Shown in pieces: positions 5,295 through 11,295 of a stretch of 32,882 nt of DNA. The translations under genes and the position numbers were made by a program. This DNA is from Conexibacter sp. Lineage in GTDB: Bacteria > Actinomycetota > Thermoleophilia > Solirubrobacterales > Solirubrobacteraceae. Position 1 is the stretch's first letter; each line of letters starts with the position of its first letter. The DNA lies in assembly GCA_025964325.1 (NCBI GenBank), contig JAOPZA010000103.1:1-32882 (forward strand), read 5' to 3'. Below the pieces are notes generated by a model. The model was given only the letters and a program-made list of their open reading frames with translations, was not told the origin of the DNA and ran no database searches.

Positions 5295-6458
5295 TCAGGG
5301 GCCGGCGGCGAGCGCGCACACCTCGCGCTCGGCCTCCGGCACGACGCCCCGCGCATCCGTCTCGCCGCCCCTGCTCCGCAGCAGCCGCCATACACGCATC
5401 AGCGGAAGCAGGATCGGGGCCATCGCGGTCCCGGACGCGCGCAGCAGCGCGAGCGTCATCGGCCGCGTCGCGGGGGCCCAGGCGGACGGCTCGGAGAGGT
5501 GCATGGCGATCATCCCGGCGATCAGGACGACGTGGCGCTCGCCGCGCGGCAGCTTGCGGGCGCCGGCGACGGCGCGGGCCGCGACCTGCTCCATGCGCAT
5601 CAGCGCAGTCGCGTCCGACGGATAGCACGCGATGAAGCTCATCTCGCCCGTGAGCGCGTCACGCTCGCGGTCGACGAGGCTGTCCAGCAGCGTGCTGAGC
5701 GCCTCGATCCACGGAAAGTAGGCGGCCCGCACCTGCTCGGCGCTCGTCGTCGTGGTGGTCGGCTCGGCGGCAGCCGCGATCAACGCGAGGACGGCGAGCG
5801 AGGAGGCGCCGGCGGCGGCCAGCTCGAACCAGCTCGCGTCGCCGGCATCGCCCTGCTGCTCGGCCCAGCGTCGCAGCGCCGGCTCGCGCAGCGGCGCCGG
5901 CGCGTGGTTCATCCCCTGCACGGCGGTGCGCTCCGCCTCCCGCGCGGCCGCCGCCTGGATGCGTCCGTCGGACGGCAGCCTCGAGCAGCCCTCGCGGCAG
6001 GCGTCGACGAGCGCCGCCAGGTAGCCGCCGTCCTCGCGGGCATGATGTCGCGCGTAGTAGTCGGGGTGCCCGGGCTCCCGTCCGATCGCCTCGGCGAGCG
6101 CGCGGTGCAGTTGCACACCGTTGCCGATCGGATCAGCGGTCGGCTGCTCCGACAGCGTGTCGAGATAGTCGATCGTCACCTGAAAGGCGACGAGGGCGCG
6201 CACAAGCCCAGGCTCGTGCCGATCGAGCGTGGCCGCGAACAGCGCCGCGCCAGCCGCGCTCAGGCGCTCGCTGCGGATCGTCGCCAGCGCCTGCTCGCGG
6301 AGCTCGGGATCGGGGATCGCGGCGGCGCGCTCCTGCCACGTCCGCAGCTCCGCGCGCACGAGCGGGAAGACGGTGATCCAGAACCGCGCCATGATGCGGC
6401 CGAACGCGACGTACTCGCGGACACGATCCGGCGTTGAGACAAGGCAGTTCGATCGCAC
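5295..6458 (-). CDS. DUF2600 family protein (YtpB/tetraprenyl-beta-curcumene synthase-like)
   Basis: A 387-residue protein matching the DUF2600 family, whose characterised member, Bacillus YtpB, is a class I-type terpene synthase acting on tetraprenyl diphosphate. Supporting blocks are VFPLVRAELRTW near residues 30-41, IPDPELREQAL at 48-58, the acidic DYLDTLSE at 97-104, and YFPWIEALSTLLDSLVDRERD near 247-267. The two Asp-rich stretches are plausible metal/diphosphate-binding sites. Length is close to YtpB (about 370). The start is the GTG at 6458, 7 nt after a TACGCT box. No prenyl-diphosphate synthase or cyclase is nearby, so substrate is unknown. No signal peptide is seen. Confidence 0.75.
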   Translation of the reverse strand: MRSNCLVSTPDRVREYVAFGRIMARFWITVFPLVRAELRTWQERAAAIPDPELREQALATIRSERLSAAGAALFAATLDRHEPGLVRALVAFQVTIDYLDTLSEQPTADPIGNGVQLHRALAEAIGREPGHPDYYARHHAREDGGYLAALVDACREGCSRLPSDGRIQAAAAREAERTAVQGMNHAPAPLREPALRRWAEQQGDAGDASWFELAAAGASSLAVLALIAAAAEPTTTTTSAEQVRAAYFPWIEALSTLLDSLVDRERDALTGEMSFIACYPSDATALMRMEQVAARAVAGARKLPRGERHVVLIAGMIAMHLSEPSAWAPATRPMTLALLRASGTAMAPILLPLMRVWRLLRSRGGETDARGVVPEAEREVCALAAGP

Positions 6459-6527: not shown

Positions 6528-9056
6528 TTAATCGTCCTGGAAGCTCATCGTCGGCGGTACGCGTGCCGCGAGGTACCCGGGCAGGGCCGCGATCGTAACG
6601 GCGACAAGCGTGACGCCTGCCAGCGCGGCGAGCGCGAGCGACCCGGAGGGCGCATAACTGGTGGGGAATCCGGTTGAGCGGGTCAGCCATTGGGTCAGCA
6701 TGAACTGTCCGTAGAGGCCGAAGACGGCGCCGATCGTACAGCCGATTCCGAGCACGATTCCGCTTTCCAACACGATCGCCCGCCATACGTCAGCGTCGGT
6801 GAAGCCGTTGAGCTTCAAGGTCGCTAGCCGCGGCCGCCGGCTCCAGATCACGCCGCTCATCGCCGCGGCGAGGGCGAGCGCGGCGGCGACCAGCACGAGT
6901 GTGGCGATCTGCGTCAGGCGGCTGAGCCCCTGACGCGTCGAGGCGCGAAACCGCTGCTCGCGCTGCTCGGCCGTCTCGACCCGCAGGCCGCTGCCGGGAC
7001 CGAGCGCCCGTCGCAGCGCGGGCACCAGCGCGGCGGGGGTGACGCGGGGGGCGACCGCCACGTGCAGCGCGCTGACGTCTTGTGCGCCCCACGCGCGACC
7101 GTAGTCCTCGGCGGTGAGGATCACGGCGCCGGCGGTCCAGCCGAAGTTCGTCACGATCGCGGCGAGGCGCAGCGGGATCGGGCGCGCCGTCGGCAGCGTC
7201 ACGCGGTCCCCGACGTGCAGGTGCTGCTCCTCCGCGATCGCCGCCGAGAGCGCGACCCAGCCGCCTGCGCGAAGCCGCCGCGTGGCCGTCGCGAGATCGC
7301 CCGCTGTGAGCTGATGAGGCAGGATGCTCGCGATCGTCGGGGCCGGCGGTGCAACGACCCAGGCGCGCCGATCGCCGATGTCGAGGAAGCCGCCGCGGTA
7401 GGAGCGCAGCGACGCGACGCCGGCCGTGGCGGCGAGCGCGCGCGAGACCTGCCCGCCGTCGAACGAGACCGTCGCGAGCTCGTTCTCCGTCCCCGCCGGC
7501 AGGACCCACAGGCCACTCTGCGCGTTGAACTGATGCGCCGCGCGGTCGAGCCCGCGTTGCAGGTCGAGGTGCGCGCCCTCGACGGCGACGCTGCCGAACA
7601 CGGCCAACGCGCCGGTCGCGGCGAGCGCGAGCGATCGCGTCGTCGAGGCGCGCAGCTCGCCCAGCGAGACGAGCAGGACGGCGCTGTGCGCGCGGCGCGC
7701 CAGCAGGTCGAGCAGCGACAGGACGCCCGCGACGATGCGAGGTGTCAGCAGCAGCATCGCGCCGACCAGCAGCGCGATCCCGACGACGGTCGCGGCCGGG
7801 GCGAGCAGCAGCACCGCGCTCGCGCCGACGACGAGGGCGACGCCGGCCGCGACCAGTCGTCGGGGTGCGGCGAAGCGGTCCTCGTCGCGCTCGTCGGTGC
7901 GATACACGGCGTCGAGCGGTCGGCGCGCGGCCAGGTCGCTCAGTGGGCGCAGCGCCGCCACCAGCGTCGCGCCGATGCCGCCCGCGAGGGCAATCGCGAT
8001 CGTCTGCCGGTCGACGATCCGCTGGCCGCCGATCGTGAACGCGAAGGAGAGGTAGCCGGGCGCCGCGTGGAAGACGTGGCGCGAGAGCTGGTCGCCGAGC
8101 AGCAGTCCCGTGAGCGACGCGGCGAGACCGAGCAGGAGCGCGTCGAACAGGACCAGTCTCACGACCGTGCTGTCGCCGAGCCCCTCCGTCCGCAGGTCGG
8201 CGATGAAGCGCCGGCGCTCCGGGACCGTCAGCAGCATCGCGTTGAAGGCGAACAGCAGGCCGACGAGCGCGCTGATCGCGGCGAACAGCGCCGTCGACTC
8301 GTTGTTCGGGGCCGTCGCCTGGCGCAGCAGACGCGCCTCCATGTCGCTCGGTCCGACGTTCGCGTAGGCGCCCGCGAGCGCCACGAGCTCGGCACGCACG
8401 CGTGCTTGCGCGCCGGGCAGCGGCTCGACCAGCACGCGCGAGATGCGTCCGCGGAGGCCGGCGATCCGCTGCGCGTAGCCGAGCGGCGCGAGCACCAGCG
8501 GGTTGTTCGCGAGCGTGCCGATCTGGTCGGGAGTCAGCACCGTCGCGACGGGCGCGGCATGCGTGCGCGCACCGATCTCGAGCGCGACCTGGTCGCCGAC
8601 GCGCGCGCCGATCTCGTCCGCCGTCCGCCGCGGGAGCGCGATCGCGTCGTGCAGCTGCAGGTTGGGGGAGGCGAACTGCGCCAGCAGGGCGCCGCGCAGC
8701 GCGACCAGGCGACGGTCGCCGCCGAGCAGCGTGACGCCGCGGACGCCGCGCGGGCCGCGGACGTTCGCGCGCACCTCGATCGCGGGCGCGGCCGTACGGA
8801 CGCCCGGGAGTCGCGCGATCGCGGGCACGATCGCGGCATCGACGCCGTCCGATCCGCGAGCAGTGACCTGCAACGTGGCCGAGCCGGTCACGCCGCGCAC
8901 GAGCTCCTCGACCGAGCCGGCGACGCTCGTGTTCGCGACCTGCACGGCGAAGACGAGCGCGACGCCGACGGCGATCCCGACGAGCGCGAGCAGCTCCTGC
9001 AGCGGGTGGGTGCGCATCCGCCGCGTGTAGAGGAAGAGGAGGTTGCGCAGTCGCAT
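6528..9056 (-). CDS. FtsX/MacB-type ABC transporter permease, large
   Basis: An 842-residue permease of the MacB/LolCE/FtsX superfamily. It begins with a first membrane segment (about 20-42) after a short basic N-terminus (RNLLFLYTRRMRTHPLQELL), followed by a large extracytoplasmic MacB_PCD-like domain (VRTAAPAIEV...). A first FtsX block lies near 260-345 and further helices near 400-440. A second extracytoplasmic domain follows, and a second FtsX block with three helices ends the protein (about 710-835). This is the double-FtsX plan of predicted permeases that work as one chain. It is 3 nt downstream of the canonical ATPase and closes the PadR operon. Likely roles are efflux of a hydrophobic compound or peptide, or lipoprotein/envelope work; substrate unknown. 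Confidence 0.85.
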   Translation of the reverse strand: MRLRNLLFLYTRRMRTHPLQELLALVGIAVGVALVFAVQVANTSVAGSVEELVRGVTGSATLQVTARGSDGVDAAIVPAIARLPGVRTAAPAIEVRANVRGPRGVRGVTLLGGDRRLVALRGALLAQFASPNLQLHDAIALPRRTADEIGARVGDQVALEIGARTHAAPVATVLTPDQIGTLANNPLVLAPLGYAQRIAGLRGRISRVLVEPLPGAQARVRAELVALAGAYANVGPSDMEARLLRQATAPNNESTALFAAISALVGLLFAFNAMLLTVPERRRFIADLRTEGLGDSTVVRLVLFDALLLGLAASLTGLLLGDQLSRHVFHAAPGYLSFAFTIGGQRIVDRQTIAIALAGGIGATLVAALRPLSDLAARRPLDAVYRTDERDEDRFAAPRRLVAAGVALVVGASAVLLLAPAATVVGIALLVGAMLLLTPRIVAGVLSLLDLLARRAHSAVLLVSLGELRASTTRSLALAATGALAVFGSVAVEGAHLDLQRGLDRAAHQFNAQSGLWVLPAGTENELATVSFDGGQVSRALAATAGVASLRSYRGGFLDIGDRRAWVVAPPAPTIASILPHQLTAGDLATATRRLRAGGWVALSAAIAEEQHLHVGDRVTLPTARPIPLRLAAIVTNFGWTAGAVILTAEDYGRAWGAQDVSALHVAVAPRVTPAALVPALRRALGPGSGLRVETAEQREQRFRASTRQGLSRLTQIATLVLVAAALALAAAMSGVIWSRRPRLATLKLNGFTDADVWRAIVLESGIVLGIGCTIGAVFGLYGQFMLTQWLTRSTGFPTSYAPSGSLALAALAGVTLVAVTIAALPGYLAARVPPTMSFQDD

Positions 9057-9059
9057 CGT

Positions 9060-9851
9060 TCACTCGGGCGAGCCGAGCGGCGCTCGCGCGCCGGCGCCGG
9101 CGCGCTCGCCGCCGGTCGCGTCCTCGGCCGCCGGGGTCGGGGCAGGGGCGAACGGCTCGAGCCTCCCGTCGTGGAGGCGAAAGGCGCGCGTCGCAACGGC
9201 GGCGGCCGCCGGATCGTGGGTCACCAAGGCGACGCCGATGTCGCGCTCGACCGCGATCGCGGCGAGCAACGCGAGGACCTCGTGCGCGCGTCGCGAGTCG
9301 AGGCTGCCGGTCGGCTCGTCCGCCAGCACGAGCCGCGGGCCGTTCGAGAGGGCGCCCGCGATCGCGACGCGCTGGCGCTCGCCGACCGACAGCTGGGTCG
9401 CCCGGTGCTCGGCGCGGTCGGCGATGCCGAGCCGCTCGAGCAGCGGCAAGACGGCCCGCCGCGCCTCGCGCCGTGACGCGCCGGCGGCCATCAGCTTCAG
9501 CGCCGCGTTGTCGATCGCCGAGAGGCCCGGCACGAGCCGGAACGTCTGGAAGATGAAGCCGAGCTCGGTCAGTCGGTGGCGGGCGGCGTCGCGGCGTGAC
9601 AGGCGCGCGAGGTCGCGGCCGTCGAACAGGACCGCGCCGGCGTCCGGGCGCGTCAGGCCGGCGGCGAGGAACAGCAGCGTCGACTTGCCGGATCCGCTCG
9701 GCCCGTAGAGCGCGACCAGCTCGCCGGGCACGAGCGCCAGCGAGACCCCGTCGACGGCGCGCACCGAGTCGCCGTCGGGCGCGGTGAAGTGCTTGCGGAC
9801 GTCGCGCAGCTCGAGCACGGCAGCGGCCCGGGCGCTAGGCGCCCCGGCCAC
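9060..9851 (-). CDS. LolD/MacB-type ABC transporter ATP-binding protein
   Basis: A 263-residue ATPase with intact key residues: Walker A GPSGSGKST at 50-58, Q-loop FIFQTFRL at 99-106, signature LSVGE at 154-158, Walker B LVLADEP with D-loop SLD, and switch His at 212 (VTHDP). The FQTF and ADEPTGSLD patterns are those of the LolD/MacB subfamily that partners FtsX-type permeases. The C-terminal tail (about 235-263) is Ala/Gly/Pro-rich and probably disordered. It overlaps the preceding ATPase gene by 17 nt and precedes the permease by 3 nt, so it is the middle of a coupled operon. It is probably the catalytically dominant nucleotide-binding subunit. Confidence 0.9.
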   Translation of the reverse strand: MAGAPSARAAAVLELRDVRKHFTAPDGDSVRAVDGVSLALVPGELVALYGPSGSGKSTLLFLAAGLTRPDAGAVLFDGRDLARLSRRDAARHRLTELGFIFQTFRLVPGLSAIDNAALKLMAAGASRREARRAVLPLLERLGIADRAEHRATQLSVGERQRVAIAGALSNGPRLVLADEPTGSLDSRRAHEVLALLAAIAVERDIGVALVTHDPAAAAVATRAFRLHDGRLEPFAPAPTPAAEDATGGERAGAGARAPLGSPE

Positions 9852-10560
9852 GCGCGGGGAAGTCGATCAGCTCGCCGCGCCGCTCCGAGCGCGGCTTGAT
9901 GAGTCGGCCGTGGTCGAGCGACATCAAGCGGTGGGAGCGCAGCAGCTCGGGTGCGTCCGGCGCCATCATCAGGACCGTCACGCCGGCGTCCTCGGCGACC
10001 GATCGCAGCAGCGAGACGAGCTGCTCGCGCTCGATCATGTTGAGGTTGGCGGTCGGCTCGTCGGCGAGCAGCAGTCGCGGGCGGCGCACGAGTGCGTGCG
10101 CGACCGCGACGCGCGTGCGGTCGCCGTCGCTCAGCTCGTACCAGTGCGCCTGCGCGCACTGCCGCGCGCCGACGCGCTCGAGCATCTCGGTGGCGTCGCG
10201 GCGCGCCTGCGTGTGGCTGTGGTGCTTCAAGCGCGGCAGCGCGACGTGGTCGAGCACCGACAGCCCGTGCGTGATGCGACCGGCCTGCCAGACGCAGCCG
10301 ATCTGCTCCAGCAGCAGGCGGGCGCGATGCTTGCGCGGGAGCGTCGCGAGCTCCTGGCCGTCGAACGTGACGCTGCCGCCGTCCGGCGCCTCGATCCCCG
10401 CCGCAACCCGCAGGAGCGTCGTCTTGCCCGAGCGGCTGCTGCCCCAGACGGCGACGAAGTCACCGCGCTCGAGCTCGAGCGAGACCTCGTCGAGCGCGAC
10501 GATCTCTCTGTACCCGCGCCAGTAACGCTTCACCACCCGGTCGAGCGAGAGGAGCGTCAT
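9835..10560 (-). CDS. ABC transporter ATP-binding protein with degenerate catalytic motifs
   Basis: A 241-residue ATPase of the same subfamily as its neighbour, but with several departures. Walker A is GSSRSGKT (40-47), Arg replacing the usual central Gly. The signature is LSDGD (143-147) instead of LSGGQ. The D-loop reads ANLN, with Asn174 for Asp. The switch region reads LMMAPDAPE, with Pro201 where His is expected. Walker B LLLADE (163-168) and the Q-loop Gln are kept. It may bind ATP but is unlikely to turn over a full site, suggesting an asymmetric heterodimer with the canonical ATPase at 9060. It starts 1 nt after the PadR gene and overlaps the next gene by 17 nt. Confidence 0.85.
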   Translation of the reverse strand: MTLLSLDRVVKRYWRGYREIVALDEVSLELERGDFVAVWGSSRSGKTTLLRVAAGIEAPDGGSVTFDGQELATLPRKHRARLLLEQIGCVWQAGRITHGLSVLDHVALPRLKHHSHTQARRDATEMLERVGARQCAQAHWYELSDGDRTRVAVAHALVRRPRLLLADEPTANLNMIEREQLVSLLRSVAEDAGVTVLMMAPDAPELLRSHRLMSLDHGRLIKPRSERRGELIDFPARGRGA

Positions 10561-10561
10561 C

Positions 10562-11191
10562 TCATCGCTGCGGCGATGGTCCCTCGGGGCGTTCCTGCAG
10601 CGTTCGGATGCCCTCGCGCACGCGCCGCAGCCACTGCACGGTCGCCTGCAGGTGCGCGACCTCCGCGTCGCGCACCATCACGCTCGCGATCGCCGGCCAC
10701 GACTCGCTGCCGCCCAGCAGCTCCTCGAGGGGGCGCGGCTCGAGCGACTGCTCGAGCCGTTCGAGGCAGGCCTGCTCCTGCTCGTAGGTGACCTCGATCA
10801 GACGCTCGAGGTTGCGTGGACGCGAGAGCGCCAGCTTGAGGTGCAGCTCCTCGCGCAGCGGCGCGAGCGTCGAGCGCGTGCTCATCCACTCCTCGAAGCG
10901 GTCGAGGCCGTTCGGCGTCGCCTCGTAGATCACACGGGGCGCCCCGCGCACGGTGCGCCGGCGTGTCGACGGAGCGCCGTCGTCGTTCGGCACGGGGCGG
11001 ACGAGACCCTCCTGCTCGAGCTTGTCGAGGGCGACGTAGATCGCGCCCGCGTTGAGCTGCCAGGCGGAGCCGATCTGCTCCTCGAAGCGCTGGACGAGGT
11101 CGTAGCCGTAGCCTCGGCGCTGCGCCAGCAATCCCAACACCGCGTACTTCATCGACATCGCGTCGCCCGTGCTCTCGTCTGGTCCCCCCAC
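10562..11191 (-). CDS. PadR family transcriptional regulator
   Basis: A 209-residue PadR regulator. The winged helix reads KYAVLGLLAQRRGYGYDLVQRFEEQIG, then GAIYVALDKLEQEGLV, the classical PadR_N pattern; the C-terminal half (about 120-200) is the helical dimerisation region (PadR_C/Vir-like). I use the GTG at 11191, because GGAGGA lies 10 nt upstream and a TACGCT box lies just beyond it; the ATGs at 11158 and 11152 lack a ribosome site. It is the first gene of a four-gene unit (PadR, two ATPases, permease), with gaps of 1 nt or overlaps throughout. PadR proteins next to exporters usually repress them until a ligand binds, so self-regulated efflux is a fair inference. Confidence 0.88.
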   Translation of the reverse strand: MGGPDESTGDAMSMKYAVLGLLAQRRGYGYDLVQRFEEQIGSAWQLNAGAIYVALDKLEQEGLVRPVPNDDGAPSTRRRTVRGAPRVIYEATPNGLDRFEEWMSTRSTLAPLREELHLKLALSRPRNLERLIEVTYEQEQACLERLEQSLEPRPLEELLGGSESWPAIASVMVRDAEVAHLQATVQWLRRVREGIRTLQERPEGPSPQR

Positions 11192-11201
11192 CGGAAGCCG
11201 C

Positions 11202-11207
11202 TCCTCC
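11202..11207 (-). promoter_or_regulatory. ribosome binding site fixing the padR start
   Basis: GGAGGA on the minus strand, 10 nt before the GTG at 11191. It decides between this start and the internal ATGs at 11158 and 11152. Confidence 0.6.
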
Positions 11208-11216
11208 GGGGACGCG

Positions 11217-11222
11217 AGCGTA
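11217..11222 (-). promoter_or_regulatory. -10 box of the PadR-ABC exporter operon
   Basis: TACGCT on the minus strand. A start about 7 nt downstream would give a leader of roughly 20 nt that just includes the GGAGGA site. It is divergent from the lipoprotein promoter at 11296, leaving about 75 bp for regulator binding. Confidence 0.4.
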
Positions 11223-11295
11223 CCTGAAGCGCTGTCGGCGCGCCAGCGCTGCTCCGGTGCGACGACGCGAGCGCCGAAGCGGAATCGTCGCTTGC

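What the first reader, a model, noticed from the sequence alone, without database searches (positions are those of the whole stretch)
9060..10560. Paired canonical and degenerate ABC ATPases with one double-FtsX permease
The ATPase at 9835-10560 has Arg in Walker A (GSSRSGKT), LSDGD for LSGGQ, Asn for the D-loop Asp, and Pro for the switch His, while its neighbour keeps the key residues. LolD/MacB ATPases normally act as homodimers, so an encoded asymmetric pair under a PadR regulator would be a variant exporter.
Basis: partly seen in the sequence, partly recalled or inferred. Interest (0 to 1): 0.5.

Follow-up and report, generated by a model that had tools for sequence, protein, structure and literature searches.

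The report
Lopsided-motor transporter beside terpene-making enzymes
A soil-bacterium gene cluster encodes a membrane transporter with one working and one crippled ATP motor subunit, and the same cluster recurs dozens of times in related bacteria beside enzymes that make long isoprenoid lipids, so it is probably a dedicated machine for handling those lipids.

Summary
The window (a Conexibacter-like genome) carries PadR, degenerate ATPase B, canonical ATPase A, double-FtsX permease and DUF2600 in one tight operon. Relatives gave 54 family permeases: 44 with B and A, 3 only A, 3 only B, 4 without an intact adjacent ATPase. A keeps Walker Lys, catalytic Glu, signature Ser/Gly and switch His in 47 of 47. 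B lacks the switch His in 47 of 47; 19 sampled B proteins form one clade. Eleven further operons, reached through DUF2600, agree (A 11/11 canonical; B lacks the His in 10/11). Sister families with this permease type show one ATPase, like E. coli YbbAP, the nearest solved fold. B's defects hit its Walker/switch motifs and its own signature while A's signature stays intact, unlike TAP/CFTR-type pairs. Of 55 DUF2600 (YtpB-type terpene synthase) places in 151 genomes, 51 lie within 2.6 kb of a family permease; some copies have prenyltransferases instead. Best reading: a YbbAP-like type VII transporter handling isoprenoid lipids, driven by an A:B pair. The A:B dimer, substrate and direction are inferred, not shown.

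The parts
11206..11230 (-). conserved block upstream of PadR (gcttcaggtacgctcgcgtccccgg in the window), possible promoter/operator
   Evidence: longest conserved stretch, by eye, in the upstream alignment of 4 orthologous operons; function not tested
10562..11191 (-). PadR-family regulator gene (likely start ATG at 11158)
   Evidence: PF03551 E 8.7e-14; stop codon 1 nt before the start of ATPase B
9835..10560 (-). degenerate ATPase B
   Evidence: PF00005; model pLDDT 92, nearest solved folds LolD and YbbA; motifs
10420..10443 (-). B Walker A GSSRSGKT (Gly4 to Arg)
   Evidence: Gly4 kept in 11 of 47 B proteins
10120..10134 (-). B signature LSDGD (Ser and second Gly kept)
10039..10041 (-). B D-loop Asn (Asp in canonical)
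9958..9960 (-). B switch-loop Pro (His in canonical)
9856..9876 (-). B C-terminal GELIDFP, a B-family tail motif
   Evidence: loose pattern (chosen after seeing the tails) 46 of 47 B tails, 8 of 47 A tails; strict V[VILF]x[FL][PRK] 34 of 47 against 7 of 47, 0.8 expected in shuffled B tails; the window itself fits only the loose pattern
9060..9851 (-). canonical ATPase A, overlapping B by 17 bases
   Evidence: PF00005 E 7.1e-32; motifs
6528..9056 (-). double-FtsX permease, YbbP-like, two periplasmic domains
   Evidence: PF02687 (two stretches) and PF12704; model pLDDT 84, best solved fold YbbP 9ge6, TM 0.61/0.63
8148..8222 (-). first coupling segment (permease residues 279-303)
   Evidence: aligned; taken to match the TM2-3 coupling helix described for YbbP (PMC12646458, passages)
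6771..6845 (-). second coupling segment (permease residues 738-762)
   Evidence: aligned; taken to match the TM8-9 coupling helix described for YbbP
5295..6458 (-). DUF2600, YtpB-type (tetraprenyl-beta-curcumene synthase family) gene, last gene of the cassette
   Evidence: PF10776 E 1.6e-84; solved relative 5yo8 E 2.6e-40; linkage

Best explanation
The operon encodes a YbbAP-like type VII ABC machine whose fused, pseudo-symmetric permease is driven by two different ATPases. A keeps all catalytic motifs. B, probably a duplicate of A, lost the switch histidine early and then drifted further. Most likely A sits on the N-terminal coupling helix and B on the C-terminal one, so that ATP is hydrolysed only in the site made of A's Walker/switch residues and B's signature, while the site built on B's Walker residues hydrolyses ATP slowly or not at all. 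The permease, which resembles one that pulls hydrophobic compounds out of the membrane, would extract or move an isoprenoid lipid made by the DUF2600 terpene synthase (or, in other copies, a cis- or trans-prenyltransferase) encoded beside it. PadR would switch the cassette on. Shown here: gene order, its recurrence, the motif states, the single B clade among sampled rows, the linkage to isoprenoid enzymes, and the predicted folds. Inferred: the duplication, the A:B dimer, which helix each ATPase binds, the substrate, the direction of movement, and PadR control.
For: 54 family permeases: 44 with B and A, 3 A only, 3 B only, 4 without an intact adjacent ATPase. A keeps Lys, Glu, signature Ser/Gly and switch His 47/47, B lacks the switch His 47/47; further set 11/11 and 10/11. 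19 sampled B proteins are one clade, SH-aLRT 99.5. In the window the four genes overlap or are a few bases apart. Sister families with 22-32% identical permeases show one A-type ATPase; 11 of 11 outgroup ATPase rows are canonical. Best solved fold is YbbP, which takes two YbbA and has two coupling helices. B's permease-facing segment co-varies with the permease C half (partial r 0.45, against 0.16 with the N half) and is the peak of all B windows for that half; A's co-varies with the N half (0.29 against 0.11); the same direction appears in 85% and 87% of random half-samples. The two coupling segments are less alike in this family than in sister families. Isoprenoid linkage: 51 of 55 DUF2600 places near a family permease; 11 of 11 further DUF2600 loci in two genomes carry the operon; 44 of 54 permeases have an isoprenoid enzyme beside them; 3 of 4 cis-prenyltransferase genes of G054 sit beside family permeases.
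Against: B's signature keeps both Ser and second Gly in only 13 of 47, so in most copies the one site with intact Walker/switch residues would have a poor signature. A's signature (Ser, second Gly) is intact 47/47, as a working A homodimer would need. Three related operons have A without B, and three lack A, two of them in the finished Conexibacter woesei genome. Control of the co-variation test: in 27 single-ATPase pairs the A segment also follows only the N half (0.31 against -0.10), so the test does not cleanly read docking; other parts of B (windows from residue 21 to 41) follow the N half up to 0.32, and the matching part of A follows the C half up to 0.31; whole A also correlates with the second coupling segment (r 0.41). 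Of 205 permease windows, 9 score as high as the second coupling segment with B's groove and 25 as high as the first with A's. 10 of 54 permeases have no isoprenoid enzyme beside them, including the orthologue L092, and three genomes have DUF2600 without the permease.
Confidence: 0.5

Rival explanations
1. A homodimer on the permease is the motor, and B is an accessory pseudo-ATPase: a regulator that caps or competes with A on the permease, or reports transporter state to PadR.
For: A keeps its key motifs including the signature in 47/47 and 11/11; B decays in both the Walker/switch motifs and the signature; the A-only trio L094/L097/L098 lacks B and PadR together; PadR directly precedes B in 41 of 47; A's groove signal in the co-variation test is the same with and without B.
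Against: Three operons keep B and lack A (L092, L131, L125); the permease has only two coupling segments, and B's permease-facing segment follows the permease C half; a sister locus has PadR with A and no B (L181), so PadR does not need B.
Confidence: 0.27
2. The ATPase pair is real but the isoprenoid link is only neighbourhood inheritance: DUF2600 was swept along with an unrelated exporter as the cassette multiplied.
For: Many copies descend by paralogous expansion, so linkage events are not independent; 10 of 54 permeases lack an isoprenoid neighbour.
Against: In G054 and G096, where no DUF2600 was found, a different isoprenoid enzyme (cis- or trans-prenyltransferase) sits beside 6 of their permeases; DUF2600 also occurs upstream or on the other strand yet still adjacent; 15 genomes share both, 2 have only the permease, 3 only DUF2600.
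Confidence: 0.15
3. B is a decaying duplicate without function.
For: Many catalytic residues lost; broken B pieces in L122; B dN/dS (0.50-0.93) is somewhat above that of A (0.39-0.55).
Against: Open frames in 47 loci plus 11, one clade among 19 sampled rows, amino-acid identity to orthologues (76, 75, 68%) above that of the permease (68, 63, 58%), permease dN/dS 0.44-0.84 (GC-rich codons make dS unreliable), confident NBD fold.
Confidence: 0.03

Closest known systems
E. coli YbbAP(-TesA), type VII ABC
   Same: One fused permease with two periplasmic domains and two coupling helices; LolD-like ATPases; best solved fold for the permease; extracts hydrophobic compounds from the inner membrane and works with an enzyme (PMC12646458, title, abstract start and passages).
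   Different: YbbAP uses two copies of one ATPase (2:1:1 with TesA). Here two different ATPases are encoded, one degenerate, and the enzymes beside it belong to isoprenoid-making families instead of a lipid hydrolase.
LolCDE / MacB / FtsEX
   Same: Same superfamily; the ATPases score best against LolD models.
   Different: Scores far under the LolD equivalog cut-off (154.9 and 192.9 against 307.75); those systems use ATPase homodimers (recalled).
Degenerate-site ABC exporters (TM287/288, TAP, CFTR, MRP1, Pdr5)
   Same: One canonical and one impaired ATPase, with loss of catalytic residues that is conserved.
   Different: In the human ones the signature defects lie in NBD2, opposite the Walker/switch defects of NBD1 (PMC7756269, passages). 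Here both kinds of defect are in B, and A's signature is intact 47/47.
RbsA/NupO fused importer ATPases
   Same: One degenerate site, with the second Walker A lacking its Lys and a deviating signature (PMC11466899, passages; which half bears it is not said there).
   Different: Type II importers with fused domains.
Bacillus subtilis YtpB and bacitracin-related BceAB work
   Same: DUF2600 is the YtpB family (control, 78); a C35 isoprenoid was once proposed to inhibit the BceAB transporter (PMC7038271, passages).
   Different: The passages read mention no operon joining them, and that study found heptaprenyl diphosphate did not inhibit BceAB.

Membership tests
Type VII ABC (MacB superfamily) | FtsX domain(s) and MacB-type periplasmic domain | tested here: met
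   PF02687, two stretches, and PF12704, above cut-off; fold match to YbbP
Type VII ABC (MacB superfamily) | LolD/FtsE/MacB-like ATPase | tested here: met
   best NCBIfam hits are of this group; B model nearest LolD and YbbA
Type VII ABC (MacB superfamily) | mechanotransmission across the membrane | not testable with these tools
   needs structures in two nucleotide states
YbbAP | single fused permease with two coupling helices | tested here: met
   alignment and predicted fold
YbbAP | two identical ATPases on one permease | tested here: inconclusive
   44 of 54 family operons encode two different ATPases, but which of them bind the permease is not known
YbbAP | TesA hydrolase partner | not tested
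   no search for TesA was run
LolCDE | curated LolD and LolC/E equivalog scores | tested here: not met
   154.9 and 192.9 against 307.75; permease 43.8 against 362.45
Degenerate-site heterodimeric ABC exporter | one catalytically impaired and one intact ATPase subunit | tested here: met
   by motif only
Degenerate-site heterodimeric ABC exporter | signature defect in the subunit opposite the Walker/switch defects | tested here: not met
   A signature Ser and second Gly intact 47/47 and 11/11; B signature keeps both in 13/47
Degenerate-site heterodimeric ABC exporter | physical A:B dimer | not testable with these tools
   co-variation is suggestive only
DUF2600 / YtpB terpene synthase | PF10776 and conserved acidic motifs | tested here: met
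   E 1.6e-84; 5yo8 E 2.6e-40; several acidic positions 97-100% conserved in 38 homologues, others 76-89%
DUF2600 / YtpB terpene synthase | makes a C35 terpene | not testable with these tools
   needs enzyme assay

The most novel reading that the evidence does not exclude
A multi-copy cassette of the Solirubrobacterales, with at least 12 family permeases in one 3.6 Mb genome (G006), couples an isoprenoid-making enzyme to a YbbAP-like lipid-extracting machine powered by a canonical/degenerate ATPase pair. Each copy would have its own PadR regulator, enzyme and co-evolved ATPase-permease docking. The degenerate subunit carries both kinds of defect in itself, so the motor cycle would differ from the degenerate-site ABC transporters described so far.
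Probability: 0.4. Interest if true: 0.78.

Novelty: new variant of a known kind. Interest (0 to 1): 0.62.

Why it matters
Paired canonical/degenerate ATPases are studied in exporters of the TAP/CFTR kind; in the listings of the searches made here I saw no paper describing them in type VII machines. A natural family with 55 sequenced pairs (44 plus 11), together with A-only and B-only relatives, makes it directly testable why one site is disabled. The close linkage to DUF2600 and prenyltransferases gives a likely substrate class for a transporter group whose function I found nowhere described, and points to an unexplored isoprenoid lipid system in soil actinobacteria.

Tried and rejected
Chance or local decay of B: rejected by recurrence and tree. 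LolD/MacB membership: rejected by curated cut-offs. A scan of named genomes with B gave 51 loci: L039 (75%) lies on a contig of the same length as G006's contig 31 and is taken to be the same genome; the other 50 are at most 38% identical and were not studied. An orphan A elsewhere in C. woesei to explain L092: 150 of 299 candidates were scored; the best unassigned one (50% identity, L150) is followed by an open frame that looks like another FtsX-type permease (judged by eye, not scanned); A from a paralogous operon could serve in trans. dN/dS is of little use at about 74% GC, and its PadR rows for L092 used a wrong frame and are ignored. Co-variation tests are mixed: the single-ATPase control did not behave as a docking readout should. 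The strict tail motif of B misses the window itself. A first motif extraction for the new loci picked wrong domains in several rows and was redone. Of the 10 permeases without an isoprenoid neighbour, open frames beside 8 were scanned, one to three each: a sulfatase-modifying-factor protein, an ABC-2 membrane protein, a histidine kinase, an AAA protein, an HTH protein, an EAL protein, or nothing; no common partner. L101's first copy and L138 were not scanned. Rows dropped before the 47/47 tallies: edge-cut B pieces in L108 and L115, an extra B-like gene in L121, two broken B pieces in L122, A-like genes of other systems in L125 and L131, and ABC rows of neither class. The permease searches scored at most 6, 3 and 2 candidates per genome, so copies are undercounted. 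Upstream flanks of the phylum sisters were about 1.5 kb.

Literature: 10 searches of open-access PMC; several listings show only part of the papers that matched. In what was listed I saw no paper on a type VII ABC system with a degenerate second ATPase or on a DUF2600-ABC operon; most subscription papers are not held, so absence is weak evidence. Papers: passages seen of PMC11466899, PMC7756269, PMC12646458, PMC3035278, PMC7038271 and PMC11708026; all others only as listings.

Full report
What is there. On the minus strand the window holds PadR (11191-10562), ATPase B (10560-9835), ATPase A (9851-9060), a double-FtsX permease (9056-6528) and DUF2600 (6458-5295). PadR stops one base before B starts, B overlaps A by 17 bases, and A stops three bases before the permease. 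The host genome G000 is 4.3 Mb in 251 contigs. Its relative G002 has a single contig of 6,359,369 bp, the size published for Conexibacter woesei (PMC3035278, passages), and shares its genus code, so the window comes from a Conexibacter-like member of the Solirubrobacterales (inference).

The degenerate pair recurs. P0003 searched in 151 genomes gave a family of 54 permeases at 36% or more identity to the window's in 17 genomes, the window's own included, among them all 7 of its genus; L140 and one fragment were set aside. They were read in 60 fetched stretches, of which L140-L149 served as outgroup. Of the 54, 44 have B and A, 3 only A (L094, L097, L098), 3 only B (L092, L131, L125), and 4 no intact adjacent ATPase (L101 first copy, L122 twice, L138). 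In 47 A proteins the Walker A Gly4 and Lys, catalytic Glu, signature Ser and second Gly, and switch His are intact (47/47 each); Q-loop Gln 46/47, D-loop Asp 45/47. In 47 B proteins: switch His 0, Walker A Gly4 11, Lys 36 (Arg in 11), catalytic Glu 25 (Asp in 18), signature Ser 28, second Gly 17, D-loop Asp 14. Eleven single-ATPase outgroup rows are canonical. The window's B keeps Lys, Glu, Gln and the key signature residues; only 4 of 47 B proteins keep Lys, Glu, signature Ser and second Gly together, so it is among the least decayed.

Origin. On a tree of 72 ATPases the 19 sampled B proteins are one clade (SH-aLRT 99.5). It joins family A at support 84 in a group that also takes in another ATPase of the window's genome (L006), with open forks and some long branches, so descent of B from A is likely but not firm. 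On the permease tree the A-only trio is nested among B-bearing operons, so B and PadR were probably lost there, and A was lost twice in C. woesei, L092 and L131. Profile searches at E 1e-60 matched 11 of 249 genomes drawn from the class, all of the window's order; one of them, G093, has only the A-only L140 type. In 396 genomes drawn from the phylum 23 matched, and besides the window these were weaker sisters. Of 19 sister loci read, 18 show one A-type ATPase in the 1.5 kb upstream, and L183 is cut before it. One sister, L181, has PadR-A-permease without B, which suggests that B was added to an older PadR-A-permease operon.

Structure. A model of B (47-row alignment, pLDDT 92) matches LolD and YbbA best. 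The permease model (26 rows, pLDDT 84, pTM 0.80) matches YbbP 9ge6 best, TM 0.61/0.63, rmsd 8.3, 13% identity. YbbP binds two YbbA through coupling helices between TM2-3 and TM8-9 (PMC12646458, passages). The segments taken as equivalent here are permease residues 279-303 and 738-762; their 19-residue cores are less alike within family permeases (mean BLOSUM 32, n=51) than within sisters (43.5, n=19) and outgroups (55.5, n=8); the A-only trio lies between (38) (rows are related, so the p-value is only a guide).

Do A and B pair? The segment around and after the Q-loop is taken as permease-facing (recalled from other ABC structures). Distances of B's segment, with the rest of B and the other permease half held constant, follow the C half (0.45) more than the N half (0.16); A's follow the N half (0.29 against 0.11); leave-one-out ranges do not overlap, and random half-samples agree in 85% and 87% (44 operons). 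Sliding windows put B's peak for the C half at that segment, 0.45-0.56, while B windows from residues 21 to 41 follow the N half up to 0.32. The control weakens this: 27 single-ATPase pairs also show the N-half signal alone, and whole A correlates with the second coupling segment. I therefore treat docking as suggested only.

The odd pattern of defects. In human degenerate pairs the signature facing the impaired Walker site is the mutated one (PMC7756269, passages). Here A's signature is intact in all 47 and 11 A proteins, while B, which has the Walker and switch defects, has also lost signature residues (both Ser and second Gly kept in 13 of 47). Either the only competent site works with a weak signature, or A also acts without B. 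The window's LSDGD keeps both residues.

Partner enzymes. DUF2600 in the window is a YtpB-type protein (5yo8, E 2.6e-40), with several acidic positions 97-100% conserved in 38 homologues and others 76-89%. In the same 151 genomes DUF2600 is found in 18, at 55 places, one gene counted in two pieces. Of these, 51 lie within 2.6 kb of a family permease: 40 beside permeases, and 11 beside permeases found when those places were fetched. Genomes split 15 both, 2 permease only, 3 DUF2600 only, 131 neither (Fisher 5.9e-16, genomes related). The blind check: 11 DUF2600 places in G004 and G006, each over 10 kb from a permease or on another contig, were fetched, and 11 of 11 carry PadR-B-A-permease. Five other stretches were fetched with them: L201 repeats L129's operon; L202, L204 and L205 show no operon; in L203 DUF2600 lies at a contig end. 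In the 11, A is canonical 11/11; B has the switch His in 1 (L200, otherwise degenerate), Walker A Lys in 2 and Gly4 in 1.

Where DUF2600 is missing, cis-prenyltransferase genes sit beside L136, L137 and L139 (3 of the 4 such genes of G054) and trans-polyprenyl synthases beside L125 and both L122 permeases (G096). In all, 44 of 54 permeases have an isoprenoid enzyme beside them and 10 do not; none was seen in sister or outgroup loci, though their flanks were short.

Verdict. I judge the system a new variant of type VII ABC transporters: YbbAP-like, with an added degenerate ATPase and tied to isoprenoid enzymes. The A:B dimer, substrate, direction and PadR control remain inferred.

Noticed in passing
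L194:6501-7316 (minus); L121:7507-8184 (plus); edges of L108 and L115: Extra B-like degenerate ATPase genes near the cassettes without an A partner seen in the stretch held, convergent with DUF2600 in L194, L108 and L115.
   Followed up: partly
L101:1973-4480 and 7795-10314; L122:1621-4089 and 7512-10025: Divergent permease pairs in which one copy has no ATPase of its own; two permeases may share one ATPase pair.
   Followed up: no
L092:5156-5905: In Conexibacter woesei the orthologue of the window operon lacks A: B ends about 12 bases before the permease start. No DUF2600 was found in the 1.6 kb held downstream.
   Followed up: partly
L201:1484-3874: Two tandem DUF2600 genes behind one cassette.
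   Followed up: no
L125:922-4576: A second, distantly related FtsX permease with a canonical ATPase lies directly upstream of the B-permease-prenyl synthase operon.
   Followed up: no
window:26622-26702: A two-copy 40-base tandem repeat, 92% matching.
   Followed up: no
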